A stretch of DNA of 64,000 nucleotides. Origin: Ardenticatenales bacterium. Lineage in GTDB: Bacteria; Chloroflexota; Anaerolineae; Promineifilales; Promineifilaceae. The notes beneath the pieces were generated by a model. It was not told the origin of the DNA, searched no databases, and saw only the letters and a list, made by a program, of their open reading frames with translations. Position numbers and translations under genes: made by a program. How positions within the stretch are numbered: position 1 is the stretch's first letter; each line of letters begins with the position of its first letter. Positions 33,076 to 60,680 of this stretch are shown piece after piece. The stretch spans positions 1 to 64,000 of the forward strand of contig JACKBM010000030.1 of NCBI GenBank assembly GCA_020634575.1, in the 5' to 3' direction.

Positions 33076-33960
33076 ATGGACTGTTTGCGTGTGAATGCTT
33101 TTGGCAAGCTCCGCATGCAATTCAATGGTGCAGAGTTGACAGCTTTTCCCACGCGCCACGTGGAGGAATTGCTGGGTTTCCTGCTACTCCATCCCCAACA
33201 GCATCACAACCGCGAAAAACTGATCGAAATGCTCTGGCCCCATGCCAGCCGCGTCAATGTACGGGCGCGCTTTTCGACTGTGCTCTGGCGCTTGCGGCGC
33301 TCTCTGGACAGCATTGGTCTGGAGGCGGATGACTGCCTCGAGGTTAGCCGGCAAGCGCTCTGTTTCCTGCCCCCGGCCGATTGGTCCTTCGACGTGCAGG
33401 AATTCCAGGATGCCCTGCAATGCCTGCGCCGCCAGGAAGATGATCGCGAACGCGAGCAGATCCTGCTGCGCGTCGTCGCCAGCTATCGCGGTGAGTTGTT
33501 CGATGGCCTTTACGCCAACTGGTGCCTGCTGGAACGGGAACGCCTGGCCCGCCTCTACCTGCGCGCCGCTGGCCAGCTGATGCTCCTGCTCATGCGCCGC
33601 AAAGCCTATGAAGAAGCCCTGACCTACGGCCATTCTATCCTGGAACATGACCCCCTGCGCGAAGAGGTTCACCGGGCCTTGATGTACTGTTACTGGCAGC
33701 TAGGGCAATTCACTTATGCCACTGAACAGTATCAAACCTGTGCCGAACTGCTCATGAATGAGCTGCGTATCCTCCCGCGTCAGGCTACGGTTGATCTCTA
33801 CCAGCAAATCATGACCGACCGCTTTGCCACCAGCCAGACTGAAGCCGATGTGGATGATCCGGCCCACGTCCAATTGCAACATGCCTTTGCCGAATTTCAG
33901 ATGGCCGGCCAGCGGTTGAGCCGAATGCTTATTGATCTGGAGACTCATCAAACGGAGTGA
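33076..33960 (+). CDS. SARP/BTAD-type transcriptional activator
   Basis: 294-aa regulator. Residues 1-95 form an OmpR-type winged helix typical of SARPs (VNAFGKLRMQFNG, then REKLIEMLWPHASRVNVRARFSTVLWRLRRSL). Residues ~100-245 are the bacterial transcriptional activator domain, a TPR-like bundle (FDVQEFQDAL, YGHSILEHDPLREEVHRALMYCYW). No ATPase domain is attached, so it is a stand-alone small SARP. GGAGGG precedes the ATG. It is the gene immediately before the injection-system operon on the same strand, and a candidate direct-repeat operator follows at 33993-34056. Control of the cluster is inference. Confidence 0.85.
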   Translation: MDCLRVNAFGKLRMQFNGAELTAFPTRHVEELLGFLLLHPQQHHNREKLIEMLWPHASRVNVRARFSTVLWRLRRSLDSIGLEADDCLEVSRQALCFLPPADWSFDVQEFQDALQCLRRQEDDREREQILLRVVASYRGELFDGLYANWCLLERERLARLYLRAAGQLMLLLMRRKAYEEALTYGHSILEHDPLREEVHRALMYCYWQLGQFTYATEQYQTCAELLMNELRILPRQATVDLYQQIMTDRFATSQTEADVDDPAHVQLQHAFAEFQMAGQRLSRMLIDLETHQTE

Positions 33961-33992
33961 TTAGCCCGCCGGTGCAGGGTCCGGCTTGTTTT

Positions 33993-34056
33993 TCTCACAG
34001 CCAATCACAAGAGTCCAATTTTGCTGTGAGAGTTTTGTGATAACAAGAGCTAGAAT
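33993..34056 (+). promoter_or_regulatory. Candidate SARP-type operator/promoter of the injection-system operon
   Basis: TGTGAG (34025) and TGTGAT (34036) are direct repeats with an 11-bp period. They are followed 9 bp later by a TAGAAT -10-like box (34051-34056). Complementary copies TCACAG (33995) and TCACAA (34005) lie upstream. SARP activators classically bind heptamer direct repeats of 11-bp period positioned about 8 bp before the -10 box, so the layout fits the adjacent BTAD gene. The first gene of the cluster starts 139 bp downstream. Confidence 0.5.
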
Positions 34057-34194
34057 GTTACTTGTTCAATGTTTACCGCTGCTCCCTGACTGTGCCGCAC
34101 CCTGGGTCACAGCAGCCTGATAACATCGTCCGAGCCAAATTGAGGCGACCATTCTCTTTCGCATATCAGCCTGCCTTTGCCAATGGGAGTATTT

Positions 34195-34461
34195 ATGGCT
34201 GACCAATCTCAAGACATGATGTCTCTTTTTGAATCGGAGTCGCACTCCTTTGTGATGCGTCTCTGGCAAGAGCATGGCGACAGCAACCCCGCGGACAGTG
34301 AGTGGCGCGGCTGGGTGGAACATGTCCAATCTGGCCAGCGCTTTTATTTTCGCGATTTTAGCGATATCAAGCAGATTGTCGGGAATTTCCTGGAAGACCA
34401 ACAAGAGCGTGCTAAAGATCAACTGTTTGAACCGATTCAAGCTCCTCATGAGGAAGATTGA
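34195..34461 (+). CDS. Small conserved acidic protein coupled to the ATPase gene
   Basis: 88-aa cytoplasmic protein. It has an acidic N-terminus (MMSLFESES), a central WRGWVEHVQSGQRFYFRDFSDIKQIVGNFL resembling short beta-strands plus a helix, and a charged tail. The (E/W)WRG-x-(V/I)xHVxSGxxxYF pattern recalls small proteins found beside regulators and kinases in this phylum, but no function is known to me. Its stop shares one base with the ATPase start (TGATG), so translation is coupled, suggesting a partner or chaperone role with the AAA+ protein. ATG 34195 has GGGAG upstream. Confidence 0.65.
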   Translation: MADQSQDMMSLFESESHSFVMRLWQEHGDSNPADSEWRGWVEHVQSGQRFYFRDFSDIKQIVGNFLEDQQERAKDQLFEPIQAPHEED

Positions 34462-36632
34462 TGGCTAAGGTCAGCACTCAGGTTCAACCTTTTCAGAATA
34501 GCCGCGAACAGCTGATGGCGGCCCTGGCTTATATTGACCTTTGCGTCAAATGGGCCGTTGCCCGGGCGCGGGCCCATGGGCTTAATCCGGAAGATGAGTT
34601 TCGTGGTCTTTACATTTCTGATGAACAGGTTGACACGCTGCTGAATAGCGGGGTTGGCTCGACGCTCTGGGCTGCTAACGGCAATGGCACGCTGCCGGGC
34701 GTGGATGGCCCGGCCATGTTGCAGCAAGCCCGGGCCAACTGGCAGGCGCAGACTGAGGTCTCGCGCCAGGCCGGCATCCCGATGTTGCTGGATCAGCTGG
34801 TTGAGACCTTCTGCCTGACCCCGGCCGAAACGGATGCCCTGCTCATGGTCCTGGCGCCGGAGCTGGACCCACGCTATGAACGGCTCTTTGCCTACCTCCA
34901 GGACGATGTCACCCGCAAACGGCCCAGTGTTGACCTGGTCCTGAACCTGCTGACTGGCTCATTTAGCGAAAAGCTTTCGTTGCGCGAACTGTTTGCGCCG
35001 CACGGCACGCTGCTCGGCTCCCAACTGGTGAACATATTTGCCGATAGCGGGGCGCGCGAAGCGACGTTACTGGCCCATTATTTGCGACCGGCCGGTAACG
35101 TCATCGCCTTCCTCCTCGGCCAGCACGGGCTGGATGAGCAGTTGGGTGGTTATGCTCGCCTCAGCGACAGCCGCCAATTCCGGCCCTCGCCGCGGGTCCA
35201 ATATGACCTGGTCGAGAAATTGGCCTCGGTAGCCGCGGAAAAGCCGTTGCTCTCGTTCCGCGGCAGCTACGGTGTGGGCCGCGAAGAAACGGCCCTTTGC
35301 CTGGCGCACCAGCTCGGTCGGCCATTGCTGACCCTGGATCTGGAAGCGTTAGGGGCCAGTAACCTGGGTCTGGGCGGCGGTCTGGCGTTGGCGCTGCGCG
35401 ATGGCCGTTTACACAGCGCCATCCTATATCTGACCGGCTGGGATTCCCTGTTAAAGGATGATCGCTCGCCGGAAAGCACCTTGCGCCAGTTATTGGCTTA
35501 CCCGGAACTGGTCATTTTGACGGGTGAGCAGGATTGGCAACCGGCCGGTCGTGACTACAGCACCGACGGCCTGCGCCGGCGCCATATCTTCCAGGTCCAT
35601 TTTGATGTACCCAATTTTGAGAATCGTCTCTCGGTCTGGGAACATTATCTCGGCGAGCGCGAGCTGGATCTCTCTCAGGTGGCCAATCATTTTCGCTTCT
35701 CACCTGGCCAGATCGAAGACGCCATCGCCACCGCCCAGGACCTGGCGCGCTGGGAAGATGAACCACTGGCTGAAGCCCATCTTTTTGAGGCCAGCCGCAT
35801 CCATTCCAATCAGAAGCTGGCGACCCTGGCCACCAAAATCCGGCCGCGCTACACCTGGAACGACATCATCCTGCCGGGTGACACCTTCCAGCAGCTGCAC
35901 GAGATGGTCAATACCGTGGCTCGCAAACATATCGTCTACGGCCAATGGGGCTTTGACGCCAAGCTGGCTCTCGGCAAGGGGCTTCACGCCCTCTTCGCCG
36001 GTGAACCGGGCACCGGCAAAACGATGTCCGCCGAAATCATGGCCAATGAGCTGGGGCTGGACCTGTACAAGGTCGACCTTTCGACTCTGGTCAGCAAATA
36101 TATCGGCGAGACGGAGAAGAACCTGGATAAGATCTTCTCCGAGGCAGCCACCAGCAACGCCATCCTCTTCTTTGACGAGGCGGATGCGATCTTTGGCAAG
36201 CGCTCCGAGGTCAAGGATGCCCATGATCGTTACGCCAACATCGAAGTCAGCTATCTGCTGCAGCGGATGGAGACCTACGATGGTGTGGTGATCCTGGCCA
36301 CCAATCTGCGAGCCAATTTGGATGAGGCCTTTACCCGCCGGTTGCACTTCGCCATCGAATTCCCGTTCCCCGAACCGGTGGATCGGGAGCGCATCTGGCG
36401 CGTGACCTTCCCCAAAAAGACACCGATTGGGGAAGATGTGGATTTCAAGGTGCTGTCGCAGCGCTTCCGCCTGGCCGGTGGCAACATCAAAAACATCATC
36501 CTGGCTGCCGCCTTCCTGGCAGCCGAGAACGAAAATGCGGTGAGCATGGTCCATCTGCTCCATGCCGCTCGCCGGGAATATCAGAAGATGGGCCGTTTGA
36601 TCGAGGAATCGTTATTTAGCTGGAATGAATAG
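34461..36632 (+). CDS. AAA+ ATPase of the contractile injection system (Afp15/Pvc15-like)
   Basis: 723-aa ATPase. The N-terminal ~240 residues are helical. A first AAA-like module near residues 250-420 looks degenerate: FRGSYGVGREETA replaces a Walker A. A second module is canonical, with GEPGTGKT at about 514-521, ILFFDEAD at about 568-575, a sensor VVILATN and the arginine-rich DEAFTRRL. This arrangement matches the eCIS AAA+ component, proposed to assist assembly or recycling of the particle. The ATG shares a base with the preceding TGA. In Afp/PVC clusters the ATPase is near the 3' end; here it leads the operon. Confidence 0.88.
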   Translation: MAKVSTQVQPFQNSREQLMAALAYIDLCVKWAVARARAHGLNPEDEFRGLYISDEQVDTLLNSGVGSTLWAANGNGTLPGVDGPAMLQQARANWQAQTEVSRQAGIPMLLDQLVETFCLTPAETDALLMVLAPELDPRYERLFAYLQDDVTRKRPSVDLVLNLLTGSFSEKLSLRELFAPHGTLLGSQLVNIFADSGAREATLLAHYLRPAGNVIAFLLGQHGLDEQLGGYARLSDSRQFRPSPRVQYDLVEKLASVAAEKPLLSFRGSYGVGREETALCLAHQLGRPLLTLDLEALGASNLGLGGGLALALRDGRLHSAILYLTGWDSLLKDDRSPESTLRQLLAYPELVILTGEQDWQPAGRDYSTDGLRRRHIFQVHFDVPNFENRLSVWEHYLGERELDLSQVANHFRFSPGQIEDAIATAQDLARWEDEPLAEAHLFEASRIHSNQKLATLATKIRPRYTWNDIILPGDTFQQLHEMVNTVARKHIVYGQWGFDAKLALGKGLHALFAGEPGTGKTMSAEIMANELGLDLYKVDLSTLVSKYIGETEKNLDKIFSEAATSNAILFFDEADAIFGKRSEVKDAHDRYANIEVSYLLQRMETYDGVVILATNLRANLDEAFTRRLHFAIEFPFPEPVDRERIWRVTFPKKTPIGEDVDFKVLSQRFRLAGGNIKNIILAAAFLAAENENAVSMVHLLHAARREYQKMGRLIEESLFSWNE

Positions 36633-36718
36633 TGCACAATGGCGCGCTGGTTGGTCCGGGAAAAGGCGCCTTCCGGGCCGGCTGAAACATAGCGAGCCAG
36701 ATTCCAGAGGAGTCCGCC

Positions 36719-37609: not shown

Positions 37610-37636
37610 AACGGCGTTTAGCTAACCGGATTTCTT

Positions 37637-38491
37637 ATGATTACCGATCTTGACGAGACCATTCGCAACATTCTCCGGGCAGAGCTTCCTATCAAAAACG
37701 GGGAGATCGACGTCAAATTTGACCAGCCCAAGCGGGAATGGAGCGCCCGGCTCAACAAACCGACCATCAATCTTTATCTGTATGATGTGCGGGAAAACAA
37801 TGTGTTGCGTACCCACCAGTGGGAGCGCATGCCACCGAAAAATGGCAAGCTCAACATTGCTGAGATGAAGCGGACACCGCTGCGGGTGGATTGTTTTTAC
37901 ATGATGACGGTCTGGGCTTCGGAGCCGGAAGATGAACACCGCTTGCTGACACGTAGCATGCTGGCCCTCTTCCGCCACCCCGTCCTGCCTAAACCAATGA
38001 TGGCCGGCTCATTGGACCAGCAGCCCTACGAGTTGCGTTCCAAGCTGGCCAGCCATGACAAGCTGACCAATCCGGCCGAAGTGTGGAGCGCCCTGGATAA
38101 TGAGATTCGCCCCAGTGTCTCCTACATCGTCACGCTGGCGCTGGATCCCTGGACCGAGATCGAGGGGCCGGTGGTGCGCAACTTCACTATTCGCACCGGC
38201 CGCGCCTCCCGCTTACCGGATTACCAGGAACTGGACGAGGATGGCCGCCTGGCCGACAAACATTACGTCGGCGGCACCGTGCGTTCCAAGAGCAAAGATA
38301 AGGAGCCGCTGGGCGGTGTCCAGGTCGCGGTCAAGGGAACTGGCTTTTTTGCCACGACAGACGGCGACGGCCAGTTTACGCTCGGCCCCCTGTTGGATGG
38401 CGAACATACCCTGGTGGCCTGGCCAGAGAAGGGTAAACCGATTGAGAAGAAGGTCGATGTCCCAGGCAGCGACTTTGATTTGGAAATGTAG
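37637..38491 (+). CDS. DUF4255 / Pvc16-like tail-terminator protein with carboxypeptidase-regulatory-like domain
   Basis: 284-aa protein. Residues 1-185 match the Pvc16_N/DUF4255 fold (MITDLDETIRNILRAEL, then PTINLYLYDVRENNVLR), the cap that ends the contractile tail in PVC/Afp particles. Residues ~205-284 form an added beta-sandwich of the CarboxypepD_reg type (GGVQVAVKGTGFFATTDGDG and FTLGPLLDGEHTLVA), probably exposed at the distal end. It lies 27 bp after the DUF4157 gene and 206 bp before the sheath. The extra domain might decorate or anchor the particle. Confidence 0.87.
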   Translation: MITDLDETIRNILRAELPIKNGEIDVKFDQPKREWSARLNKPTINLYLYDVRENNVLRTHQWERMPPKNGKLNIAEMKRTPLRVDCFYMMTVWASEPEDEHRLLTRSMLALFRHPVLPKPMMAGSLDQQPYELRSKLASHDKLTNPAEVWSALDNEIRPSVSYIVTLALDPWTEIEGPVVRNFTIRTGRASRLPDYQELDEDGRLADKHYVGGTVRSKSKDKEPLGGVQVAVKGTGFFATTDGDGQFTLGPLLDGEHTLVAWPEKGKPIEKKVDVPGSDFDLEM

Positions 38492-38680: not shown

Positions 38681-38697
38681 TTCTTAAGGAGAGAAAC

Positions 38698-40248
38698 ATG
38701 GCTACAAGTTACCAGACTAAGGCCCCAGGTGTCTATGTCGAGGAACTCCAAAGCGCGGTTAAACCAATCGCGGCCGTAGGGACATCCATTACGGCGTTCG
38801 TCGGCATCACAGCTGAGGCGAGCCGGAAGGCGCTGAACCCCGAAACCGGGGCCCGCGAACCGGTTGAATCCCGTCTTAACAAGGCCACCCTGGTCACCAG
38901 CTGGACCCAATACGTGGATACCTTTGGTGGCTTCCTGGCTGATGCCTATCTGCCGGATGCTGTCTATGGTTTCTACAACAACGGTGGTGGCCCCTGCTAC
39001 GTCGTCAGTTTACGGGCCGTCGCAGAAGATGCTTCCAACGCCAAATCAGCTTCGGTTGACGTGACGGCTGGTGGCAAGAAAGCGTTCACCGTTACGGCGA
39101 CCACCGCCGGCGAGAGCGGCAACAACCTCTCGGTCACCGTCAAGAATGACGTCGACAAAGATGGTAAGCCCACTGGCACCTTCTCCCTGACCATCGGCGG
39201 CGAGACCAAAGCGGGTCTGGCGATGAAGAAAGGCGACGGTCATGTTGGCGATGCTGAATTTGCCGCCGCCTCGATCAGTGGCGTGACCGGCACGGCCGCC
39301 CCGGATGATGGCACCTACAACCTCTCCGGTGGTGGTATGCCCCCGCTGGATGTGGCCGATTTCGTTGGTGATGCCCTCGAGCGTACCGGCCTGGCCGGCC
39401 TCGAAGCGCTGGATGACGTCAGCCTGTTGGCCTGCCCGGATATCTTCTCCGGCTACGATGGCTCCGACAAGGCAAAAGAGCGCGTTAAATCCATTCAGAC
39501 CGCGATGATTACCCATTGCGAATTGATGGGCTACCGCTTTGCCCTGCTGGATACCCCGCCCGGGATGAATGCCCAGCAAGCCAAAGAATGGCGCAACTAT
39601 TGCAACTATGACACGTCCTATGCGGCGATGTACTATCCCTGGATCACGGTTCCGGATCTGACCGGCAGCGACAGCACCAGCCGTAACATTCCGCCCAGCG
39701 GTTATGTGGTTGGCGTCTACAACCGGACGGACTCCGAGCGCGGCGTTCACAAGGCCCCGGCCAACGAAATCGTCCGCGGCGCCATCGACCTGGAGCTGAA
39801 CCTCTCCCGTGGTGAGCAGGATACGCTCAACCCGATTGGTGTGAACTGCATCCGTGCCTTCACCGGCCGGGGCATCCGCATCTGGGGCGCTCGTACGCTC
39901 AGCAGCGACACATCCTGGCGTTACATCAACGTCCGCCGTCTCTTCATCATGATTGAGGCGTCGATGGATCAGGGTCTGCAATGGGTGGTCTTCGAGCCGA
40001 ACGACTATGACCTCTGGCAGCGGGTTCGCCGCGACGTCACGACCTTCCTGCGGATGGTCTGGCGCAGTGGCGCGCTCTTCGGCCGGACTGAGGATGAAGC
40101 CTTCTATGTGAAGGTGGACGAAGAACTCAATCCGTCTGAAGTCCGCGACCTGGGTATGTTGATCATCGAGGCAGGTGTCTGCCCGGTGAAACCGGCCGAA
40201 TTCGTCATCTTCCGGATTAGCCAGTGGGCTGGTCCGAACGCTGGCTAA
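38698..40248 (+). CDS. Contractile tail sheath protein
   Basis: 516-aa sheath subunit of the phage/eCIS family. The N-terminal APGVYVEELQSAVKPIAAVGTSITAFVGI is the conserved handshake strand region. A beta-rich insertion (about 105-215, VDVTAGGKKAFTVTATTAGE) follows. The conserved core contains LLACPDIF and WRNYCNYDTSYAAMYYPWI, and the C-terminal domain carries WRYINVRRLFIMIEASM and the interlocking ISQW end. It forms the outer contracting cylinder. Afp/PVC have three sheath paralogues; here there is one. AAGGAG precedes the ATG. Confidence 0.95.
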   Translation: MATSYQTKAPGVYVEELQSAVKPIAAVGTSITAFVGITAEASRKALNPETGAREPVESRLNKATLVTSWTQYVDTFGGFLADAYLPDAVYGFYNNGGGPCYVVSLRAVAEDASNAKSASVDVTAGGKKAFTVTATTAGESGNNLSVTVKNDVDKDGKPTGTFSLTIGGETKAGLAMKKGDGHVGDAEFAAASISGVTGTAAPDDGTYNLSGGGMPPLDVADFVGDALERTGLAGLEALDDVSLLACPDIFSGYDGSDKAKERVKSIQTAMITHCELMGYRFALLDTPPGMNAQQAKEWRNYCNYDTSYAAMYYPWITVPDLTGSDSTSRNIPPSGYVVGVYNRTDSERGVHKAPANEIVRGAIDLELNLSRGEQDTLNPIGVNCIRAFTGRGIRIWGARTLSSDTSWRYINVRRLFIMIEASMDQGLQWVVFEPNDYDLWQRVRRDVTTFLRMVWRSGALFGRTEDEAFYVKVDEELNPSEVRDLGMLIIEAGVCPVKPAEFVIFRISQWAGPNAG

Positions 40249-40283
40249 ACTTAACATGAAGAGCATAATCTTGGAGGTACAAA

Positions 40284-40751: not shown

Positions 40752-40762
40752 ATTGAATGGCA

Positions 40763-50374: not shown

Positions 50375-50422
50375 AACAGCATCTGTCTGCCGCTGTGCCG
50401 GCGGACAGATGCTGTTATTTTT
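50375..50422 (+). terminator. Rho-independent terminator ending the structural operon
   Basis: An 18-bp stem, AACAGCATCTGTCTGCCG (50375-50392) and CGGCGGACAGATGCTGTT (50399-50416), with one G-T pair and a 6-nt loop, is followed by ATTTTT. It lies 30 bp after the baseplate J-like stop. A TATAAT box at 50465-50470, 39 bp before the first kinase, suggests re-initiation for the kinase genes, though no good -35 is visible. Confidence 0.92.
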
Positions 50423-52143: not shown

Positions 52144-52234
52144 TGAGCTGGCCGCCAGCATGGCGGAATGTCGCCTGGCGGCTCGTTTATCAGGGAGAGC
52201 ACAGGGGCGACCCTGAATTGTAGGACGATTTTTC

Positions 52235-55200
52235 ATGTCTAACCTTGTTGGCCAACAGATAGAACAATATCAGATCCAGAAGCTTCTCGGCGAAGGCGGG
52301 ATGGGATCGGTCTATCAAGCCTATGATCTGAACCTGGCGCGCATTGTGGCGCTGAAAGTGACGCATCCCCAGCTGGCCCGCCAGCCGCAGTTCCAACAAC
52401 GCTTCATGCAGGAAGCGCGCGCGGCGGCCCGGTTGAAACATCCTTCCATTGTCGATATCTACCATTTTGGCACCTATCGCGACATGCTCTACATGGTGAT
52501 GGAGTTTGTCGAAGGCGCCAGCCTGGGCGCTTATATCCGCCAGTTACAGCGGTCCGGTCAGGTTATTGAGCTGCGGGAGACGCTGTTCATCCTGGCTCAG
52601 GTCGCTGAGGCGCTGGGTTACGCGCACCGGCAGGGGGTGGTTCACCGGGATATCAAGCCGGACAATGTGCTGCTGCGCAAGCTGGATGACCCGGAGCAAC
52701 CGGGCCAGCCGCCAATCCGCGCCAAGGTGACGGATTTTGGTCTGGCCAAACTGTTGGAAGGCGGGCTGGAGACGGCGACAGGTACCTTTATGGGTACGCT
52801 GCCGTACATGTCCCCGGAACAATGCCTGGGCCAGGAGCTGGATGGTCGTTCTGACCTCTACTCGCTGGGAGTGATGTTGTTCCAGATGGCGACCGGCCGG
52901 TTGCCATTTGATATCCGCACACCCACCGAAGCGGTCATGAAACATATGAAAGAGGCGCCGCCCGCGCCGCGGACCATTAACCCCGGCCTGCCGCGCCCGG
53001 TAGAGCGGGTGATTGAGCAGTCGCTGGCCAAAAGCCCCGGCGACCGCTACGCCACGGGCAGCGAGTTTGCCCGGGCCATGCGGAGCGTGATGGGCGAGCT
53101 GACCTCAGCCGATGTGACCCAATTTGCCGCCGGCAACACCGTCATGAGCCTCATGACCCAGTTGGATACGGGTTCCGCGGCCCCCATGCCCAGCCGCATG
53201 GGCGCGGACCTGACGGCGCCCCCCGGTTCCGAGCAACTGATCATCACCCGCAAAGGGCAGGAGCCGCGCTCCTATCCGCTGGACCGTGAATCTTTCACGA
53301 TTGGCCGAACCCAGGAAAATGACATTGTCCTGAACGTGTCCGGCGTCTCACGCCAACATGCCAAGATCGAACGGAGCGGTGCCGGCTTCACGGTAACGGA
53401 CCTCAACAGCACCAACGGCTCGTTTCTGGACGACCAGAAGTTACTGCCCGGCATCCCGGAGCCCTGGGATAGTGGCCGGATGTTGCGGATTGGCTCCTAC
53501 TTCCTGAGCTGGCGCCGTGGCGCCGGGGCAGCCCCGGCGGCGGGCGCGATCTCGCCGGGCCAACTGCCGGTTCAGAAGCCGCCGATTGCCGAGGCGCCAA
53601 CTTACTCGCCAGGTCAGGGCCAGGGCACTTACGCGGCGACACAACCGGCCGGTCCCAGCCGCCCCGTCCCTGTCGGCGCCACCCAGATGCTGAGCCGCAG
53701 CGGTGAAATGAGCCTCACCATCAACCCGACCAATGTCAAGGTTGAGCCGGGCGGTCGCCAGATCATCCAGGTAGACCTGCTCAATACCGGGGCAACGGTG
53801 GACCATTTTATGGTCAACGTTCACGGCATCCCGGCTGATTGGTACACAGAGCCGGGCAATGCGGTCCATCTGATGCCTGGCGCCTCGTCGATGGTATCCG
53901 TTACTTTCCACCCGCCACGCCAGAGCAGCACCCGGGCGGGTGACTATGATTATGAGATTGTGGCGCGTTCGCAGTCCCGGCCCAACGAATCGGCGTCGGT
54001 GACCGGCCGGTTGACGGTTGGCGCTTTCCACGATTTCCGCACCGATATGCGGCCGGCGACGGTGCGCAGCGGCCGCAATGTGCGCCTCCTGGTGCAGAAC
54101 ACGGGGAATGCGCCGATGAGCTATGTGGCCATCGCCCGCGATCCGTCGGACACCATTCAGTTTGAGGGCAACAATCGCCGGCTGGAAGTGCAGCCGGGTG
54201 AGCGGCAGACGGCGGATATCCGCGTCTCCGCCGCCAAACGCCCCTTCATCGGCAGTACCACCACCCAGCCATTCTCGGTGGAGCTAGCGGCCGGGGACGG
54301 TGCCCAAAAGGCCCAGCAGGGGCAGCTGCAGATCCGGCCGATCCTGCCGACCTGGATTATTCCCCTGGCGGCCTTCTTCCTGATTGGCCTCTGTGCCATT
54401 TCTCTGTTTGGCATCAATTTCTACCGTAACCTGCAGAATGACAATGCCACGCTGACGGCTGAGTTTGTCGCTAACATCAACCTGGCGACCGCTGATGTGC
54501 TGACGCGCCAGTTTGAGGAGCAGCAAGTCGCGGCTCAGGAAGAACAGGCGCAAAATGCGACCGCCACCGCCCTCTACCTCACCGCCCAGGCGGAAGGGGA
54601 TGATGACAACGACGGTCTCAGCAACAACCAGGAAGCGGCCCTCGGCACCCAGCCGGACAATCCCGATACCGATGGCGATGGTCTCTCCGATGGTGAAGAG
54701 GTCAACCGGTACGGCACCCAGCCCAAGAACATCGACACCGATGGTGATGGTCTGGTAGATGGCGCCGAGGTGGAAGCGGGGACCAGCCCCATCAACCCGG
54801 ACTCCGACGGCGATGGTGTGCCCGACGGCCTGGACGATCAGCCATTGGCCACGCCCATTCCAACCGATACACCGACCGGAACGCCGACGCCAACGACAGA
54901 ACCGACGGAGACGTTCACACCCACGCCGACAACCGAATTCACGCCGACACCAACCGCCACCGTAACGCCGACGGCGACGGCAACCGAGCCTCTTGAGCAG
55001 GACCGCAGCAGCGAAGTTTCGGTGGTCAATAACCGGACCATCTACTACATTCGGCTGACCGAGCCGGGGCTTATCACCGTCAATGCTTCCTGGACAGGTG
55101 CGCAAAGCCAGTTGAGCTTGCTTATCAACGGGCCGGGTCAGCAAGGATTCTACGCCCGCCAGGATGGCTCCAGCGAGCTGTCGGTGAGCTACCAGGTCAC

Positions 55201-55618
55201 GGCGGATGACTTCGATGATGGTGATGAATGGCGGGTGACGGTGGCCAGCTTCGGCAGCGACCGGGCCGATGGCACGATTACGATTTCGTACCCCAGCGGT
55301 TCGACCGATGGTGCCTTTGAAACGACCTTTGTCGTGGTGCCCAGTTCAGGTTCAGCGGTGAAGGTGCTGGTCTTAAATGATGCCGGCCCCATCGAGGCTG
55401 AGGCCGAGTGGAACGGTGATCCCAACAGCCTGGCGCTGATCGTCAATGGCCCGGGGCAGGTTAACGCTTATGCGCGCCAGGATAGCGACAGCCCGGTTTC
55501 TGTAAATTACACGGTGACTGCGTCTGACTTTTCGGCCGGTGATTACTGGCGGGTTAGTCTGACCACCTTTAGCGTCATAGACAGCCTGACGGCAACTATG
55601 ACATTGACACATCCGTAG
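52235..55618 (+). CDS. Receptor-type Ser/Thr kinase 2 with FHA, Ig-like, TM and Ca-repeat domains
   Basis: 1127 aa. Domains in order: kinase (about 10-265; GEGGMGSVY, VVHRDIKPDN, DFGLAKL, intact) and FHA (about 345-425; FTIGRTQEND, VSRQHAKIE, NSTNGSF). Two Ig-like/NEW3-type domains follow (about 490-700), then TM (WIIPLAAFFLIGLCAISLFG, about 706-727). Beyond the TM are thrombospondin-type-3-like calcium repeats (DTDGDGLSDGEEV-type, about 790-868), a Thr/Pro linker, and two tandem ~95-residue beta domains at the C-terminus. The topology puts kinase, FHA and the Ig-like domains in the cytoplasm and the Ca-repeats outside. It is paralogous to kinase 3 up to the Ca-repeats. Confidence 0.92.
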   Translation: MSNLVGQQIEQYQIQKLLGEGGMGSVYQAYDLNLARIVALKVTHPQLARQPQFQQRFMQEARAAARLKHPSIVDIYHFGTYRDMLYMVMEFVEGASLGAYIRQLQRSGQVIELRETLFILAQVAEALGYAHRQGVVHRDIKPDNVLLRKLDDPEQPGQPPIRAKVTDFGLAKLLEGGLETATGTFMGTLPYMSPEQCLGQELDGRSDLYSLGVMLFQMATGRLPFDIRTPTEAVMKHMKEAPPAPRTINPGLPRPVERVIEQSLAKSPGDRYATGSEFARAMRSVMGELTSADVTQFAAGNTVMSLMTQLDTGSAAPMPSRMGADLTAPPGSEQLIITRKGQEPRSYPLDRESFTIGRTQENDIVLNVSGVSRQHAKIERSGAGFTVTDLNSTNGSFLDDQKLLPGIPEPWDSGRMLRIGSYFLSWRRGAGAAPAAGAISPGQLPVQKPPIAEAPTYSPGQGQGTYAATQPAGPSRPVPVGATQMLSRSGEMSLTINPTNVKVEPGGRQIIQVDLLNTGATVDHFMVNVHGIPADWYTEPGNAVHLMPGASSMVSVTFHPPRQSSTRAGDYDYEIVARSQSRPNESASVTGRLTVGAFHDFRTDMRPATVRSGRNVRLLVQNTGNAPMSYVAIARDPSDTIQFEGNNRRLEVQPGERQTADIRVSAAKRPFIGSTTTQPFSVELAAGDGAQKAQQGQLQIRPILPTWIIPLAAFFLIGLCAISLFGINFYRNLQNDNATLTAEFVANINLATADVLTRQFEEQQVAAQEEQAQNATATALYLTAQAEGDDDNDGLSNNQEAALGTQPDNPDTDGDGLSDGEEVNRYGTQPKNIDTDGDGLVDGAEVEAGTSPINPDSDGDGVPDGLDDQPLATPIPTDTPTGTPTPTTEPTETFTPTPTTEFTPTPTATVTPTATATEPLEQDRSSEVSVVNNRTIYYIRLTEPGLITVNASWTGAQSQLSLLINGPGQQGFYARQDGSSELSVSYQVTADDFDDGDEWRVTVASFGSDRADGTITISYPSGSTDGAFETTFVVVPSSGSAVKVLVLNDAGPIEAEAEWNGDPNSLALIVNGPGQVNAYARQDSDSPVSVNYTVTASDFSAGDYWRVSLTTFSVIDSLTATMTLTHP

Positions 55619-55712
55619 GCAGGCGGCAGGGGGAATAGTAGGCTGGTCCCCCTGCCGTAAAATTCACGCCCTTTCTGCTCTGCTGCCGGTGGGATGCTGA
55701 TACAATTTGCTT

Positions 55713-58700
55713 ATGCCAAATTTGATCGGGACCCAATTGGACCAATATCGTCTGGATTCGTTGCTGGGCGAAGGGGGTATGGGAGCCGTATACCGGGCTT
55801 ATGACATCAACCTGGCGCGTACAGTCGCCGTCAAGGTGATGCATTCGCACCTGGCCCAGCAACGTCAATTTCAGCGCCGCTTTATGACGGAGGCTCGAGC
55901 TGCGGCTCGCCTCAAGCATCCTTCAATCGTCGATATCTATCATTTCGGCAATCAGCTGGGCATGCTCTACATGGTGATGGAGTATGTGCAGGGCTTGAGC
56001 CTGGGCGCCTACATTCGCCGGCTGCATCAGAGTGGCCAGGTCATTGAGCTGCGCGAGACGCTGCTCATGCTGGCCCAGGTGGCTGACGCCCTCGGCTACG
56101 CGCACCGGCAAGGTGTCGTCCATCGGGATATCAAGCCAGATAATATTTTGCTCGCCCGCCTTGACGAGCCGGATGAGGAAAGTGAGATCCCCTTACGCGC
56201 CAAGGTGACAGATTTTGGCCTGGCCAGACTGGTTGAAGGCGAACAAATCACGGCGACGGGGACATTTATGGGCACGCTGCCCTACATGTCGCCGGAGCAA
56301 TGTCTGGGGCAGGAGCTGGATGGGCGTTCCGATCTGTATTCGCTGGGCGTGATGTTGTATGAGCTGACTACCGGCCGGTTACCCTTTGACATCCGCACCC
56401 CCACCGATGCCGTCGTCAAACATATGGAATCGGAACCGCTGCCGCCGCGGGAAGCCAATCCGCAGCTGCCGTCGGTGATTGAAGCTGTCATCCTCAAGGC
56501 AATCGCCCGTGACCCGGCCCAGCGTTTTGCCACCGGTGGTCACATGTCGCGTGTTCTGCGCGCCGCCGCCGGCAAATTGACGGCCAACGAAGTTACCCGC
56601 TTCAGCGCTGTTGGTCCAATCTCCAGCCTGGTGACGGAACTCCAGCACGAGGCAGCCCCCATCCCCACGCAGATGGGTGATGAGTTGACCTTGCCACCGG
56701 GTAAATGCCAGCTTATCGTCGCCCGCAAAGGGGAAAAGCCGCGCCGCATCGAAATGAGCGGCGATACGATCCATATCGGGCGTACCAATGATAACCAGGT
56801 TGTGCTGACGCAGTCCGGCATTTCCCGGCAGCATGCCCGGGTGGAACGGACACCGGCCGGTTGGCAGATTACCGACCTGGGCAGCACCAACGGAACTTTT
56901 CTGGATCGGCAGAAATTGCTATCTGGTATTCCGGAATTGTGGGAAGAAGGGACACCGGTACGGATTGGTCCCTTTTTCATGACCTGGCGCGAGACGGGGC
57001 CGGCGGAGATAGCACCGGCCAGCAACGGTCGCGAAAACAGCTCCACCTACCTGGCCAATCGGCGTGCTGCGCTCAGCAATGAGGCGTCGCAAATCTTTAG
57101 CCAATCCGGCCGCCTCAGCCTGATCCTGGAGCCAAACCTGGTCAAAGTAACGCCAGGTGAGCGAGCTGACGTCAACCTGGAACTATTCAACCAGGGTTCC
57201 GCCGTTGATCATTTTAAGGTGGTGATAACTGAGCTGCCCGGCGAATGGTTTACCCTGGCCCAGGACTCTATCCAGCTGATGCCGGGTTCCCATGCGACCC
57301 TCTCGTTCACTATCCATCCGCCACGCAGCCCCAGCGCCGGCGTAGGCAAGCATCGCTATCAGATTGAGGTCCGTTCAACCAGCAATACGCTGGAGTCAGC
57401 GGCTGTGACCGGACAGGTGGAGATATCGCCTTTTGCCGAATTTTCTACCGACTTGCGGCCCGCGCAACTGCCCCATGGCAGTGTGGCTCAGCTGGTGGTG
57501 CAGAATAATGGCAACGCCCCGGCCAATTACAGCATCGTCGGGCGTGATCCAAGTGAGCAAATCTTGTTCATGGCTGCAGAGGAGAAAGTCTCCGTCCTGC
57601 CCGGCGAACGGCGTGTTGTTGATATTCAGATCAACGGCCGGCAGCAGCCCCTGTTTGGCCGGCAGCAGCAGCTACCTTTTTCCCTCCATGTGTTGCCCAT
57701 TGGCGATGCGGCAGAGCTGCAGAGTGGTCAATCCTTGCCTGGTTTGCTGGATGTGCGGCCGCGGCTGCCGCGCTGGCTGCTGCCCGTTGGTATCGGTCTG
57801 CTCATATTTCTCTGCTTGATCGCCATCGGCGCCTCCGTCTTCTTTAACGAACGGACCAATACGGCCAGTCTGACGGCAACCGCCGCCTTCGTGGCTGATA
57901 TTTCCCTGACTCAGGAAAGCGATGTTGACGGCGATGGCCTCACCTTTGCGGAAGAAACCCGCCTCAATACCAACCCTGACGTCGCGGATAGCGACAACGA
58001 TGGCGTCGACGATGGTGCCGAGGTGGCGGCCGGTCTTGATCCCAACGACCCGGATGGCGATGATGACGGCCTGAATGACGGTGACGAGTTGGCGCGTGGC
58101 ACTGACCCGAAGCGTGTCGATTCAGATGGTGATGGTATTGGCGACGGAGAAGAAGTGCTGGGCGGCACGGACCCAACCAAGGCGGATACAGATGGCGATG
58201 GTCTGGATGATGGCGAAGACCCGGACCCGGGCCAGGCCCCCACACTGACTCCCACACCCATTCCTGACCCGCCCACGAATACGCCGGCGCCCAACACAGC
58301 CACACCGACCGATACGCCAACGGCAACGCCGTCGCCGACCATGACGGCCACTTCCAACATCCCGCCGCCCGGGCCGCCGCCGGCGGCTATTCCGGCTGAA
58401 GTTGCCTACATCGACGATGGCAACCTCTATTTCATGGTGTTGGGTAGCGCTGGTGGTGAGTTGTACGAGGTCCTGGATGAACGGCAGTTGACCAATGGTA
58501 ACAACACCGTGGCCGCGGCCATATCGCCCGATGGCGCCTATGTAGCCGTCCTGAATGTCTTTTTCCAGCAATACGAGCTGGCGGTGGTCTCCAGCGACGG
58601 CTCCAGCTTTAGTAGCCTGGTGGCGCCGGCCGATCTCTACACCGGCGACTTTGACCCGCCTGAAGAAGGTGTTACCCGCACGATCCAGCAGATCGCCTGG

Positions 58701-59564
58701 GCACCGGATGGCGAGACCATTCTGTTCAACACCGTTGGCAACTTCCAGTTTGGTGCGGTGCCGCAATCAGATCTGTGGACGGTCACGCTGGACGGAGAGC
58801 TGACTGAGCTATTTGCCCCATTTGAAGCCGGCGCATTTGCCATATCCGCCAAGGGCGAACTATTGATCGCCACGGATAGCGAACTATTCCGTACCGACCT
58901 GACCCGTAGCTTCAATGAAACATTGTTGTCCTTTGTCCCGGTGGTTACCTATTCGGAATATGTTTACCAGCCGCAGCCGGTCTGGACAGCGGATGGGGAG
59001 ATGGCGTATCTGGTCTTGCCAAGCAGTGATCCGCTGGCTGACAATCCATTTGTGGATTTGTGGCAGATACCGGCCGGTGGTGCAGCAGAGCTGGCTGGCA
59101 CCATCCTCAACAGCAGCTTCACGCTGGCCGATCATTATCTACTGTCTGCCACTGGTGCGCTGGCCTATGTTCAGCAGCCCCAGGATGACCCGGATATCAA
59201 CCTGCTTTACTTCGGGCCGGCTGATGCTCTGCTAGAATATGACAGTGGTACCCAGTTGCAGCTATTTGGCTGGAGTCCGGCCGGTGAGCGGCTCCTGTAT
59301 GCTGAGAGTGGGGATGGCAGTTGGGCCGACGCCGATTTGAATTTCCGGATCGCTGATCAGGATGGGAATGTGGATGCCTACTTTACCGGATTGGGCGCAT
59401 TCCGGGCGGGCTATTGGCTGACCGAGAGCCAATTCCTGCTGGTCGCCAGCGAGGATGGCCAGGCAGCGACGATCTACATCGCCAACCTGGAAGGCGCCAT
59501 TGCCAGCCTGAAGCTGATTCAGCTGGAGCCGGGGTTAGTAGTGGATGTCCATCTGCCCGGCTAA
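55713..59564 (+). CDS. Receptor-type Ser/Thr kinase 3 with FHA, TM, Ca-repeats and beta-propeller
   Basis: 1283 aa with the same cytoplasmic architecture as kinase 2: intact kinase (GEGGMGAVY, VVHRDIKPDN, DFGLARL) and FHA (IHIGRTNDNQ, ISRQHARVE, GSTNGTF). Ig-like domains and a TM segment follow (WLLPVGIGLLIFLCLIAIGA, about 687-706). Outside, longer calcium repeats (VDGDGLTFAEE, DSDGDGIGDGEE; about 736-838) and a Pro/Thr linker lead to a ~390-residue WD40/TolB-like propeller (AAISPDGAYVAVLN, AWAPDGETILFNT, LFGWSPAGERLLY). Kinases 2 and 3 thus share the signalling half but differ in the sensor. ATG 55713 is chosen over TTG 55707. Confidence 0.92.
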   Translation: MPNLIGTQLDQYRLDSLLGEGGMGAVYRAYDINLARTVAVKVMHSHLAQQRQFQRRFMTEARAAARLKHPSIVDIYHFGNQLGMLYMVMEYVQGLSLGAYIRRLHQSGQVIELRETLLMLAQVADALGYAHRQGVVHRDIKPDNILLARLDEPDEESEIPLRAKVTDFGLARLVEGEQITATGTFMGTLPYMSPEQCLGQELDGRSDLYSLGVMLYELTTGRLPFDIRTPTDAVVKHMESEPLPPREANPQLPSVIEAVILKAIARDPAQRFATGGHMSRVLRAAAGKLTANEVTRFSAVGPISSLVTELQHEAAPIPTQMGDELTLPPGKCQLIVARKGEKPRRIEMSGDTIHIGRTNDNQVVLTQSGISRQHARVERTPAGWQITDLGSTNGTFLDRQKLLSGIPELWEEGTPVRIGPFFMTWRETGPAEIAPASNGRENSSTYLANRRAALSNEASQIFSQSGRLSLILEPNLVKVTPGERADVNLELFNQGSAVDHFKVVITELPGEWFTLAQDSIQLMPGSHATLSFTIHPPRSPSAGVGKHRYQIEVRSTSNTLESAAVTGQVEISPFAEFSTDLRPAQLPHGSVAQLVVQNNGNAPANYSIVGRDPSEQILFMAAEEKVSVLPGERRVVDIQINGRQQPLFGRQQQLPFSLHVLPIGDAAELQSGQSLPGLLDVRPRLPRWLLPVGIGLLIFLCLIAIGASVFFNERTNTASLTATAAFVADISLTQESDVDGDGLTFAEETRLNTNPDVADSDNDGVDDGAEVAAGLDPNDPDGDDDGLNDGDELARGTDPKRVDSDGDGIGDGEEVLGGTDPTKADTDGDGLDDGEDPDPGQAPTLTPTPIPDPPTNTPAPNTATPTDTPTATPSPTMTATSNIPPPGPPPAAIPAEVAYIDDGNLYFMVLGSAGGELYEVLDERQLTNGNNTVAAAISPDGAYVAVLNVFFQQYELAVVSSDGSSFSSLVAPADLYTGDFDPPEEGVTRTIQQIAWAPDGETILFNTVGNFQFGAVPQSDLWTVTLDGELTELFAPFEAGAFAISAKGELLIATDSELFRTDLTRSFNETLLSFVPVVTYSEYVYQPQPVWTADGEMAYLVLPSSDPLADNPFVDLWQIPAGGAAELAGTILNSSFTLADHYLLSATGALAYVQQPQDDPDINLLYFGPADALLEYDSGTQLQLFGWSPAGERLLYAESGDGSWADADLNFRIADQDGNVDAYFTGLGAFRAGYWLTESQFLLVASEDGQAATIYIANLEGAIASLKLIQLEPGLVVDVHLPG

Positions 59565-59702
59565 GGCGGCAACACGCTGATCCCTGGTGGTCGTTACCGC
59601 CAGTGTGCCCATCAGAATCAGGCAGTTGCGGCAGCAGGGCCAAATAGCTGGAAGTTAGCTCGATTCCCGAGTAGAATTAAACGGAGAAACAGCGAGGGGA
59701 GT

Positions 59703-60680
59703 ATGGCCCAGGATTTCATCATTCAACTTAAGATAGAAGGTCCGGACATGTCGGAGACGATGGCGCTGCCCGTGGGCAGTTCCGTGGTTGGCCGGCAGCG
59801 CGAGGCTGATATCCCTTTGCCCAGCCCGATGATTTCGCGACGTCACGCCCAGTTTGATGTGACGGACAGTGGTTGCACGGTCACCGACCTGGAAAGCGCC
59901 AATGGCACCGTCCTCAACGGCCAGGCATTGACCGGCAAGGTGCCCATGACCTTAAGCCACGGTGATGTGCTGGAGATCGGTCCGTTCCGCCTGACCTACG
60001 AGCAGATCCCGATTGCCCGGCCGGTTGCTGCTCCGGAACCGCCGCCGGAACCCCCCAAGCAAGAAGTTGAACCCAAGGTCAAGGTTGAGAAAAAGGCGCC
60101 ACCCAAAGAAGTTGCGCCAGCGCCGCCGCCCTCCTTTTTCATCGAGCCTGCGTTCCAGCCGGAATATGATAAGGCGCCGCCCGGTTTGTCGATGACCGAC
60201 AGCCGCTACCTGGATTATTTGCCCAGCAGTTATCAGAACGATTTTATGGCTCGCTTTTTGGCCTTGTTTGAGTCGATTCTGGGGCCAATTGAGTGGGGGG
60301 CAAACAATTTTGACATGTATCTGAGCCCGCGGACGACACCGGCCGGTTTTATTCCCTGGCTGGCCAGCTGGTTTGACCTGGAATTTGATTCCACCTGGTC
60401 AGAACCACAGAAACGTCTGCTCCTGACTGAGGCGCACCAGCTTTTTGCCCGGCGGGGCACCAAATATTCGCTCAGCCGTCTGCTCGAGATCTATACGGGC
60501 GACAAGCCAGAAATCGAGGATTTGCAGTCAGAACAAGATTCCTTCATTTTCACGGTGAACTTGCCCGTTGCCGAGGACAGTGTGAATCGCAACTTGATTG
60601 AACGTATGATTGAGGCGAATAAACCTGCCCATACGAGTTACGAACTACAATTCAAGCGGTCAGCCCGTGCCCGAAAATAA
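59703..60680 (+). CDS. FHA domain fused to P2 gpI-like baseplate protein
   Basis: 325 aa. Residues 1-100 are an FHA domain with the phosphothreonine-binding residues (SVVGRQREAD, ISRRHAQFD, ESANGTV). Residues ~105-155 are a Pro/Glu/Lys linker (PEPPPEPPKQEVEPKVKVEK). Residues ~165-325 match the tail protein I/P2 gpI family (RYLDYLPSSYQNDFMARFLA, PAGFIPWLASWFDLEFD, FARRGTKYSLSRLLEIYTG), a baseplate-periphery component of contractile tails. It sits after the kinases, separated from the other structural genes. A phospho-reader on the baseplate would physically link kinase signalling to the particle. Confidence 0.92.
   Translation: MAQDFIIQLKIEGPDMSETMALPVGSSVVGRQREADIPLPSPMISRRHAQFDVTDSGCTVTDLESANGTVLNGQALTGKVPMTLSHGDVLEIGPFRLTYEQIPIARPVAAPEPPPEPPKQEVEPKVKVEKKAPPKEVAPAPPPSFFIEPAFQPEYDKAPPGLSMTDSRYLDYLPSSYQNDFMARFLALFESILGPIEWGANNFDMYLSPRTTPAGFIPWLASWFDLEFDSTWSEPQKRLLLTEAHQLFARRGTKYSLSRLLEIYTGDKPEIEDLQSEQDSFIFTVNLPVAEDSVNRNLIERMIEANKPAHTSYELQFKRSARARK

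What the first reader, a model, noticed from the sequence alone, without database searches (positions are those of the whole stretch)
33076..60680. A contractile injection system wired to three receptor kinases and FHA readers
Seen: eCIS structural genes (sheath, two tubes, LysM adaptor, spike, gp25, gpJ, Pvc16-like cap, AAA+ ATPase, DUF4157 protein) followed by three intact transmembrane Ser/Thr kinases and an FHA-gpI fusion. Known: in T6SS, PpkA kinase and Fha1 control assembly by threonine phosphorylation; classical Afp/PVC systems lack this. Inferred: this eCIS is anchored or fired at the membrane in response to an extracellular signal sensed by the kinases. That would be a signalling-controlled, cell-associated CIS distinct from freely released particles.
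Basis: partly seen in the sequence, partly recalled or inferred. Interest (0 to 1): 0.95.

Follow-up and report, generated by a model that had tools for sequence, protein, structure and literature searches.

The report
Kinase-gated injection machine of Chloroflexota
In this DNA, likely from a Chloroflexota bacterium, a phage-tail-like injection machine is encoded beside three protein kinases predicted to span the cell membrane, and its baseplate protein carries a phosphothreonine-reading type of domain with intact binding residues, so an outside signal likely brings the machine to the membrane and fires it.

Summary
Window 33076-60680 encodes a contractile injection system (CIS) closest to the Streptomyces cytoplasmic CIS, three kinases with intact catalytic motifs, and an FHA-gpI baseplate fusion. 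It is not a one-off: 318 proteins match FHA-gpI, and the phosphothreonine-site residues are intact in 118 of 120 scored rows. A kinase lies in the fetched flanks of 38 of 44 FHA-gpI loci but 1 of 39 loci whose gpI lacks FHA. Most of this is one deep clade, so these are not independent events.

Unexpected: a membrane protein family (two Ig-like domains, then one transmembrane segment) accompanies this CIS type, in 52 of 55 Chloroflexota genomes with it and 12 of 345 others. It occurs bare, with FHA, or with kinase plus FHA (window K2, K3). The kinase-FHA linker holds a conserved threonine.

Most likely, phosphorylated receptor kinases recruit the CIS through its baseplate FHA domains and let it fire, a role like that of CisA, whose close homologues Roseiflexus is reported to lack. 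Roseiflexus particles were imaged free in the cytoplasm, so standing anchoring is unlikely. Phosphorylation, binding and firing are untested.

The parts
33076..33960 (+). BTAD-domain transcriptional regulator, likely regulator of the cluster
   Evidence: PF03704 E 4.8e-19; BTAD genes near CIS genes in L002-L005, L007, L013, L077-L081; BTAD named among eCIS-adjacent regulators in PMC8213781 (passage)
34458..36632 (+). AAA+ ATPase with WHD (Cis15/Pvc15-like)
   Evidence: PF00004 and PF22977
36719..37609 (+). eCIS_core (DUF4157) protein with a C-terminal repeat array
   Evidence: PF13699 E 1.3e-31; tandem array 37309-37541
37637..38491 (+). Pvc16-like cap protein
   Evidence: PF14065 E 2e-36
38698..40248 (+). 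sheath
   Evidence: PF04984, PF17482; best solved match is the S. coelicolor CIS sheath, 8bky/9gtp, E 7e-137
40284..40751 (+). inner tube protein
   Evidence: PF06841
40815..41177 (+). small protein with a CPHC motif near its C-terminus, unassigned
   Evidence: no Pfam match; relatives between the two tube genes in L014, L016, L024, L028
41366..41812 (+). second tube protein (tube initiator-like)
   Evidence: PF06841
41843..45439 (+). 1198-aa Pro/Ala/Gln-rich protein, unassigned
   Evidence: no Pfam match; several relatives have an eCIS_core ORF in this slot
45463..46140 (+). CIS_tube + LysM adaptor (Cis7-like)
   Evidence: PF19266, PF01476
46150..47904 (+). spike (Cis8/VgrG-like)
   Evidence: PF04717, PF05954; best solved match 9gtr_q E 1.7e-48
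47940..48335 (+). gp25-like baseplate protein (Cis9-like)
   Evidence: PF04965
48342..50345 (+). gpJ baseplate wedge protein (Cis11-like)
   Evidence: PF04865; 9gtp_1K E 1.6e-145, next best E 1e-09
50375..50416 (+). terminator-like hairpin between structural genes and kinase block
   Evidence: 18-pair stem, consensus scan only
50509..52143 (+). K1: Ser/Thr kinase, one TM segment, ectodomain, no FHA
   Evidence: PF00069 E 2.4e-48; intact motifs, TM near residue 316; ectodomain relatives beside FHA-gpI in G001, G002, G003 and G008, 4 of 15 genomes searched
52235..55618 (+). K2: kinase - linker - FHA - Ig - Ig - TM - TSP3 - ectodomain
   Evidence: PF00069 E 1.1e-49, PF00498 E 2.6e-15, PF18884; motifs and TM; FHA-Ig-Ig-TM model, mean pLDDT 85.7
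53156..53158 (+). K2 Thr308 (SLMTQL): candidate phospho-docking site, predicted
   Evidence: T in 34 of 38 rows with a letter, 44 rows aligned; shuffle control 0 of 60
53702..54424 (+). Ig-Ig-TM module of K2
   Evidence: family A3; 52 of 55 CIS genomes against 12 of 345 others
55707..59564 (+). K3: kinase - linker - FHA - Ig - Ig - TM - TSP3 - C-terminal ectodomain
   Evidence: PF00069 E 2.3e-48, PF00498 E 6.6e-15, PF18884; FHA-to-TM part aligns with K2's at 42% identity
56634..56636 (+). K3 Thr310 (SLVTEL): equivalent candidate site, predicted
   Evidence: alignment
59703..60017 (+). FHA domain of FHA-gpI
60195..60680 (+). gpI baseplate wedge domain (Cis12-like) of FHA-gpI; the only Tail_P2_I hit among the 20 ORFs scanned
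   Evidence: PF09684; 9gtp_E E 8.5e-15 over residues 177-322; Foldseek 9gtp_A E 1.2e-9, but rmsd 15.3 over 164 columns

Best explanation
A contractile injection system of cytoplasmic type, whose baseplate protein gpI carries an FHA domain, is encoded together with three kinases predicted to span the membrane, and kinase autophosphorylation on a signal likely creates phosphothreonine sites that would dock the baseplate at the membrane and allow firing. Shown by sequence: the gene set; the match of the gpI half to a six-chain protein of the solved S. coelicolor baseplate (taken here to be Cis12); intact phosphothreonine-site residues in the FHA domains of gpI, K2 and K3; the conserved linkage; and a CIS-associated Ig-Ig-TM module to which FHA and kinase domains are fused. 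Inferred: extended particles wait free in the cytoplasm; the ectodomains of K1-K3 sense an outside or envelope signal; the kinases phosphorylate the conserved linker threonine (K2 T308, K3 T310); up to six FHA domains on flexible linkers of 50-60 residues bind clustered phosphorylated receptors with avidity; the baseplate then contacts the membrane and the sheath contracts. This would do the job that CisA does in Streptomyces and could end in lysis of the producing cell or injection across the envelope; the sequence does not tell which.
For: Family: 318 homologues at E<=1e-3, all 120 listed carrying both FHA and Tail_P2_I; six pThr-site residues intact in 118 of 120 rows with letters there, the listed proteins plus the window. 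Linkage: a kinase in the fetched flanks of 38 of 44 FHA-gpI loci against 1 of 39 bare-gpI loci, within 200 bp in 23 (two truncated loci dropped, both with an adjacent kinase-FHA gene); in the regions from the even Chloroflexota sample alone, 19 of 23 against 0 of 17. Closest CIS: gpJ, sheath and spike match the S. coelicolor models best; the gpI match there is 190 aa with the gpI part starting at residue 22, so the FHA is an added N-terminal part. Ig-Ig-TM family in 52 of 55 CIS genomes against 12 of 345 others, all 63 same-contig matches within 28.3 kb of gpJ. Topology: no hydrophobic segment before Ig in 112 of 113 homologues of the bare form, exactly one after in 105. Linker Thr: 34 of 38 rows with a letter, 44 aligned; 0.74 of 34 less-redundant rows against a shuffle maximum of 0.50, 0 of 60 shuffles reaching it. 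Gap in knowledge: the Roseiflexus CIS is cytoplasmic and lacks close cisA homologues (PMC12998442, section 24), yet three genomes whose sheath is 95, 94 and 85% identical to its published 138-aa antigen carry FHA-gpI and two kinase-FHA-TM genes each. Precedent: CisA is a single-pass protein needed for contraction (PMC12237407); the T6SS kinase PpkA with Fha recruits T6SS parts at the membrane (PMC12607579, passages).
Against: No biochemical, localisation or expression data. The linkage is essentially one or a few evolutionary events: the gpJ tree needs 3-5 changes of the FHA label and the independent-pairs test has only 3 pairs. The 39 bare-gpI loci include other phyla and other CIS types (L030, L031, L035, L037-L039, L041-L043, L045), which widens the contrast. 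L088 has FHA-gpI with over 9 kb on both sides and no kinase; L006 and L017 have none in 10 kb downstream, with only 2-3 kb upstream held; L093, L096 and L099 end early. L024 has a kinase without FHA on gpI. Kinase-FHA-Ig-TM proteins also exist with no gpI in the 19.9 kb fetched around them (L140, L141), and 12 genomes have the Ig family without strong gpJ. Two genomes with split gpJ matches below my cut (G241, G323) have no strong Ig match; counting them gives 52 of 57. Only the top few candidates per genome were scored (5, 6 and 3), so absences are soft. Six of 42 kinase-FHA copies lack HRD and DFG motifs. The linker Thr is absent or gapped in 10 of 44 rows. The CisA partner predicted in PMC12237407 is Cis11, not Cis12. 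No PP2C-type phosphatase among the 20 window ORFs, and one near CIS in only 4 of 20 relatives. The hairpin at 50375-50416 may uncouple expression. Roseiflexus particles were seen unanchored.
Confidence: 0.5

Rival explanations
1. T6SS-like assembly control: the kinases phosphorylate a CIS or accessory protein and the FHA on gpI gates completion of the baseplate, that is building rather than docking.
For: In T6SS, PpkA phosphorylation of Fha promotes membrane-complex and baseplate assembly (PMC12607579 and PMC6082577, passages); gpI matches a wedge component; K1-K3 and FHA-gpI follow one another downstream of the hairpin.
Against: Roseiflexus particles are fully assembled and extended in intact cells (PMC12998442), which points to a step after assembly; the kinase-FHA receptors carry a CIS-associated Ig-Ig-TM module also found without any kinase.
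Confidence: 0.2
2. Safety lock: phosphorylated receptors or cargo hold the CIS inactive, and loss of phosphate releases it for firing.
For: Firing is thought to be lethal to the producer in Streptomyces, so a checkpoint is expected (PMC12237407 discussion); some copies look like pseudokinases; PP2C genes lie about 20 kb downstream of FHA-gpI in three L002-type genomes (G001, G002, G005).
Against: A PP2C gene lies within about 22 kb of the CIS in only 4 of 20 genomes searched, and imaged particles are not membrane-bound.
Confidence: 0.12
3. The FHA on gpI reads phosphorylated cargo or another CIS protein, and the kinases modify that partner; membrane recruitment is not involved.
For: eCIS_core genes lie beside FHA-gpI in L011, L020 and L096, and a match below the cut-off in L006; the FHA ligand is unknown.
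Against: The conserved linker threonine lies in the receptors themselves; the Ig-Ig-TM membrane module accompanies nearly every such CIS.
Confidence: 0.1
4. Ordinary released eCIS with generic neighbouring kinases that act on unrelated targets.
For: Kinase-FHA-Ig-TM proteins also occur away from CIS (L140, L141), and the linkage largely reflects one clade.
Against: 38 of 44 against 1 of 39, domain fusion of FHA into the baseplate, conserved binding residues, CIS-associated Ig-Ig-TM module, no tail-fibre domain hit, closest kin is a cytoplasmic CIS.
Confidence: 0.06

Closest known systems
Streptomyces coelicolor cytoplasmic CIS with CisA (PDB 9GTP/9GTR/9GTS; PMC12237407)
   Same: Closest sheath, gpJ and spike; no tail-fibre domain hit here; accessory membrane protein with cytoplasmic N-terminus, one TM and an extracytoplasmic C-terminal domain, needed for firing there and predicted here.
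   Different: The gpI match (190 aa) has no room for FHA; CisA has a largely unstructured N-terminus; its predicted partner is Cis11; the main text has no hit for kinase, FHA or phosphorylat.
Roseiflexus castenholzii cytoplasmic CIS (PMC12998442)
   Same: Its sheath antigen is 95, 94 and 85% identical to sheaths in genomes with FHA-gpI and kinase-FHA genes; Chloroflexota.
   Different: A word search of the paper's main text finds neither 'kinase' nor 'FHA'; its membrane and firing partner was left open.
T6SS threonine phosphorylation pathway (PpkA, PppA, Fha)
   Same: Transmembrane Ser/Thr kinase plus FHA protein controlling a contractile machine at the membrane.
   Different: Here FHA is fused to the baseplate wedge and to the receptors; no TssJLM or TssK and no phosphatase among the 20 scanned ORFs; one sheath gene.
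Thylakoid-anchored CIS of Anabaena (named in PMC12237407 and PMC12998442; details recalled)
   Same: A CIS that meets a membrane inside its own cell.
   Different: Anchored by a baseplate extension; sequence matches of the window proteins are far weaker (7b5h: gpJ E 0.00016, sheath E 1.6e-51).

Membership tests
Cytoplasmic CIS lineage (subtype IId) | Structural proteins closest to S. coelicolor CIS | tested here: met
   gpJ E 1.6e-145 against 1e-09 for the next; sheath E 7e-137; spike E 1.7e-48; PDB ids 9GTP/9GTR/9GTS tied to the paper. Solved structures only; no tree with named subtypes was built
Cytoplasmic CIS lineage (subtype IId) | No tail-fibre gene | tested here: inconclusive
   No fibre domain in 20 ORFs, but the 120-aa and 1198-aa ORFs have no match
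Cytoplasmic CIS lineage (subtype IId) | CisA homologue | not tested
   No CisA sequence was compared; the paper reports no close homologue in Roseiflexus
Cytoplasmic CIS lineage (subtype IId) | Particles in the cytoplasm that fire in the producer | not testable with these tools
   Needs cryo-tomography
Type VI secretion system | TssJLM membrane complex and TssK | tested here: not met
   No such Pfam family among the 20 ORFs of 33076-63435
T6SS threonine phosphorylation pathway | Transmembrane Ser/Thr kinase | tested here: met
   Three kinases with intact motifs and one predicted TM each
T6SS threonine phosphorylation pathway | PppA-type phosphatase in the cluster | tested here: not met
   No PP2C match in the 20 ORFs; the window upstream of 33076 was not scanned
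T6SS threonine phosphorylation pathway | Stand-alone Fha scaffold protein | tested here: not met
   FHA occurs only fused to gpI, K2 and K3 among the 20 ORFs
Phosphothreonine-binding FHA domain | Conserved Arg, Ser, Arg/His and Asn of the binding site | tested here: met
Released eCIS (Afp/PVC) | Closest sequence kin and tail fibres | tested here: not met
   Best Afp and Pvc sheath matches E 1.6e-50 and 4.4e-50, Afp11 E 5.4e-07, against S. coelicolor 7e-137 and 1.6e-145; no fibre domain hit

The most novel reading that the evidence does not exclude
Chloroflexota evolved a phospho-switched receptor system for a cytoplasmic injection machine: the symmetric baseplate carries six FHA readers that dock on autophosphorylated, Ig-stalked receptor kinases in the cell membrane. 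It arose stepwise from a plain Ig-Ig-TM membrane partner, first by adding FHA, then kinase, and it convergently resembles the T6SS kinase-Fha pathway while filling the place of CisA.
Probability: 0.42. Interest if true: 0.93.

Novelty: new variant of a known kind. Interest (0 to 1): 0.87.

Why it matters
What tells a cytoplasmic CIS to meet its own membrane and fire is open: CisA answers it in part for Streptomyces, and the Roseiflexus paper states that the mechanism there may differ. This work names specific candidates (FHA-gpI, the kinase-FHA-Ig-Ig-TM receptors, and one conserved threonine) that can be tested in vitro and by phosphoproteomics of a species already shown to make particles. If right, phosphothreonine reading would be built into the baseplate of a phage-tail-like machine, and kinase control of contractile machines would have arisen twice. 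The Ig-Ig-TM family also gives a marker for candidate membrane partners of CIS across Chloroflexota.

Tried and rejected

Independent co-gain test of FHA-gpI and kinase: uninformative, only 3 pairs. I therefore give the Fisher p-values (5e-16, 1e-49) only as size of association, not as independent events.

PP2C search for a PppA analogue: hits in 20 of 20 genomes, but near the CIS only in G001, G002 and G005 (about 20-22 kb downstream; same contig by coordinates) and G182 (15 kb upstream).

K1 as a conserved core part: its ectodomain is beside FHA-gpI in only 4 of 15 genomes; two weaker matches lie elsewhere.

Fold search with the K2 model: the Ig pair matches ASH/MSP-type domains of ciliary and CEP192 proteins at low TM-scores (0.18-0.27 by query length); fits cytosolic Ig domains but shows no function. 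In the VIA second look the listed rows cover only the FHA part. In the Foldseek list the S. coelicolor baseplate chain ranks second but superposes loosely (rmsd 15.3).

Literature for prior description: searches over the held open PMC library. Word searches of main texts: PMC12998442 (0 hits for kinase and FHA), PMC12237407 (0 for kinase, FHA, phosphorylat), PMC10066040, PMC10598620, PMC12210884 (0 for kinase and FHA), PMC8213781 (3 kinase hits: a histidine kinase, a general remark on regulators, a reference title; 0 for forkhead). Whole sections were read only in PMC12998442 and PMC12237407, abstracts of both; of PMC12607579 and PMC6082577 passages only. Subscription papers such as Chen 2019 and all supplements were not read, so a prior mention there is not excluded.

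Full report
What is there. The window carries, on one strand, a contractile injection system (CIS) gene set from a BTAD regulator (33076) to gpJ (50345), then three Ser/Thr kinases (50509-59564) and a protein with an N-terminal FHA domain and a C-terminal Tail_P2_I (gpI) domain (59703-60680). The kinases keep the motifs expected of active enzymes, and each has one hydrophobic segment. K2 and K3 have kinase, linker, FHA, Ig-like part, TM, then TSP3 repeats and an ectodomain; K1 has kinase, TM and ectodomain only. No genome is held for the window. A partial protein identical to K2 over 88% of the region searched is named Anaerolineales, so the host is probably an Anaerolineales member (Chloroflexota).

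The FHA-gpI fusion is a maintained family. 318 proteins match at E<=1e-3; all 120 listed have both domains, and those with an organism name come from Chloroflexota. Six residues of the phosphothreonine site are intact in 118 of 120 rows with letters there.

Kinase linkage. Mapping 85 loci with HMMs grown from the window proteins, and dropping two whose gpI start lies off the contig (both have an adjacent kinase-FHA gene), 38 of 44 FHA-gpI loci hold a kinase in the fetched flanks (23 within 200 bp; 28 with a kinase-FHA protein), against 1 of 39 loci whose gpI lacks FHA. Some of the 39 are other phyla and other CIS types; in the regions from the even Chloroflexota sample the counts are 19 of 23 against 0 of 17, and with gpJ present and at least 8 kb downstream 18 of 19 against 1 of 21. 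Of the six exceptions, L088 is a real one (over 9 kb on both sides), L006 and L017 lack upstream sequence, and L093, L096, L099 end early. A gpJ tree of 56 rows shows that this is mostly one deep clade (3-5 changes) and that an independent-pairs test cannot decide. Order, number and type of kinases vary: before gpI in the window, after it in most; L002-type loci use a VWA-FHA protein, a kinase without FHA or TM, a TM kinase and a YukD-FHA protein. The link was thus kept through rearrangement, which I read as selection, an inference.

A membrane partner family. Searching genomes with the FHA-to-TM region of the CIS kinases (A2) showed that its Ig-Ig-TM part occurs at CIS loci even without FHA or kinase. 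The family (A3) has two Ig-like domains followed by one TM; of 113 homologues of the bare form, 112 have no hydrophobic segment before the Ig part and 105 have exactly one after (hydropathy only). In the 400-genome sample there is a gap between strong matches (E<=3.1e-39) and the rest (E>=1.5e-25). Strong matches occur in 52 of 55 genomes with the window-type gpJ (single stretch at E<=3.1e-80) and in 12 of 345 others; of 103 strong matches, 63 lie on a gpJ contig, all within 28.3 kb, 27 on other contigs of such genomes, 13 in genomes without it. Only six and three candidates per genome were scored, so the counts are floors. G241 and G323 have split gpJ matches below the cut and no strong Ig match; with them it is 52 of 57. 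Forms seen: bare Ig-Ig-TM (L095, L103, L106, L130, L132), FHA or FHA-FHA plus Ig-Ig-TM (L025, L094, L107-L109, L111), and kinase-FHA-Ig-Ig-TM (window K2 and K3; 28 of 44 FHA-gpI loci have a kinase-FHA protein). An Acidobacteria CIS has one directly after gpI (L028). Two kinase-FHA-Ig-TM proteins lie with no gpI in the 19.9 kb fetched (L140, L141). The stepwise order is a reading of this series, not a dated history.

A candidate phosphosite. The linker between kinase and FHA is poorly conserved except for one threonine (window K2 T308 in SLMTQL, K3 T310 in SLVTEL): T in 34 of 38 rows with a letter there, out of 44. In 34 less-redundant rows T fills 0.74 (28 have a letter); shuffling each linker and realigning gave at most 0.50 in 60 trials. 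The alignment program can favour such columns; the shuffle control addresses that only in part. Columns of L, A and R at the kinase end are equally or nearly as conserved.

Link to an imaged system. PMC12998442 (abstract, sections 21, 22 and 24 read) shows cytoplasmic, unanchored CIS in Roseiflexus castenholzii, places it in subtype IId with Streptomyces, and says the firing mechanism may differ because close cisA homologues are absent. Its printed 138-aa sheath antigen is 95, 94 and 85% identical to sheaths in genomes G187, G362 and G351. Their loci carry FHA-gpI and two kinase-FHA-TM genes each (L084-L086); G187 has FHA-gpI about 11 kb downstream of the sheath, two kinase-FHA-TM genes, one kinase-FHA gene without a TM hit, two FHA-TM genes and the start of a further kinase (L122, L123). 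The paper's main text has no hit for kinase or FHA. [quoted passage not shown]). The Ig-Ig-TM receptors are predicted to have the same layout.

Mechanism. Putting these together, I think the kinases are the receptors that call a free cytoplasmic CIS to the membrane: a signal on the ectodomain, phosphorylation of the linker threonine, capture by up to six FHA domains on the baseplate, contact, firing. Every step after the gene set is inferred. The T6SS kinase-Fha pathway is a working precedent (PMC12607579 and PMC6082577, passages), but this is not a T6SS: no TssJLM or TssK is found among the 20 ORFs. Rivals are assembly control, a phosphate-dependent lock, reading of phosphorylated cargo, and chance neighbours; the last is the least likely.

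Verdict. Observation confirmed; interpretation partly supported and sharpened. Novelty: a new variant of a known kind, cytoplasmic-type CIS with phosphothreonine reading built into the baseplate. Interest is high because it gives concrete, testable candidates for an open question in a lineage already under cryo-tomography.

Noticed in passing
window 32646-32789: About nine copies of a 16-bp direct repeat between a MutY-like gene (by eye) and the BTAD gene.
   Followed up: no
window 50375-50416: Terminator-like hairpin with an 18-pair stem between gpJ and K1; may split the cluster into two transcripts.
   Followed up: partly
window 41843-45439: 1198-aa Pro/Ala/Gln-rich ORF with repeated IQR/VQR motifs that resemble the tail of the DUF4157 protein; several relatives have an eCIS_core domain in this slot.
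   Followed up: partly
L012:4791-8084, L019:11217-14510, L015:7176-10574, L011:12153-14459: Kinase-FHA paralogues without HRD and DFG motifs, probably pseudokinases, in the same loci as a kinase-FHA gene that keeps them.
   Followed up: no
L002:11243-18876 and like loci L003-L005, L007, L013: A different signalling cassette beside FHA-gpI: BTAD, VWA-FHA, kinase without FHA, TM kinase, YukD-FHA, with a PP2C gene about 20 kb downstream in three genomes.
   Followed up: partly
L107:5523-6506, L109:8929-10446: gpI of these loci has a weak Ig-like match (33 bits) at its N-terminus, where others carry FHA.
   Followed up: no
L107:3845-5596: FHA-DUF4159 protein directly after a bare gpI, with an FHA-FHA-Ig-Ig-TM gene next.
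   Followed up: no
L138:1-14874: Very large Ig-TM proteins (frames of 2078 and 2880 aa) about 20-36 kb from a CIS in genome G309.
   Followed up: no
L002:429-3605: Gene upstream of FHA-gpI with an Aspzincin_M35 peptidase domain, a possible cargo.
   Followed up: no
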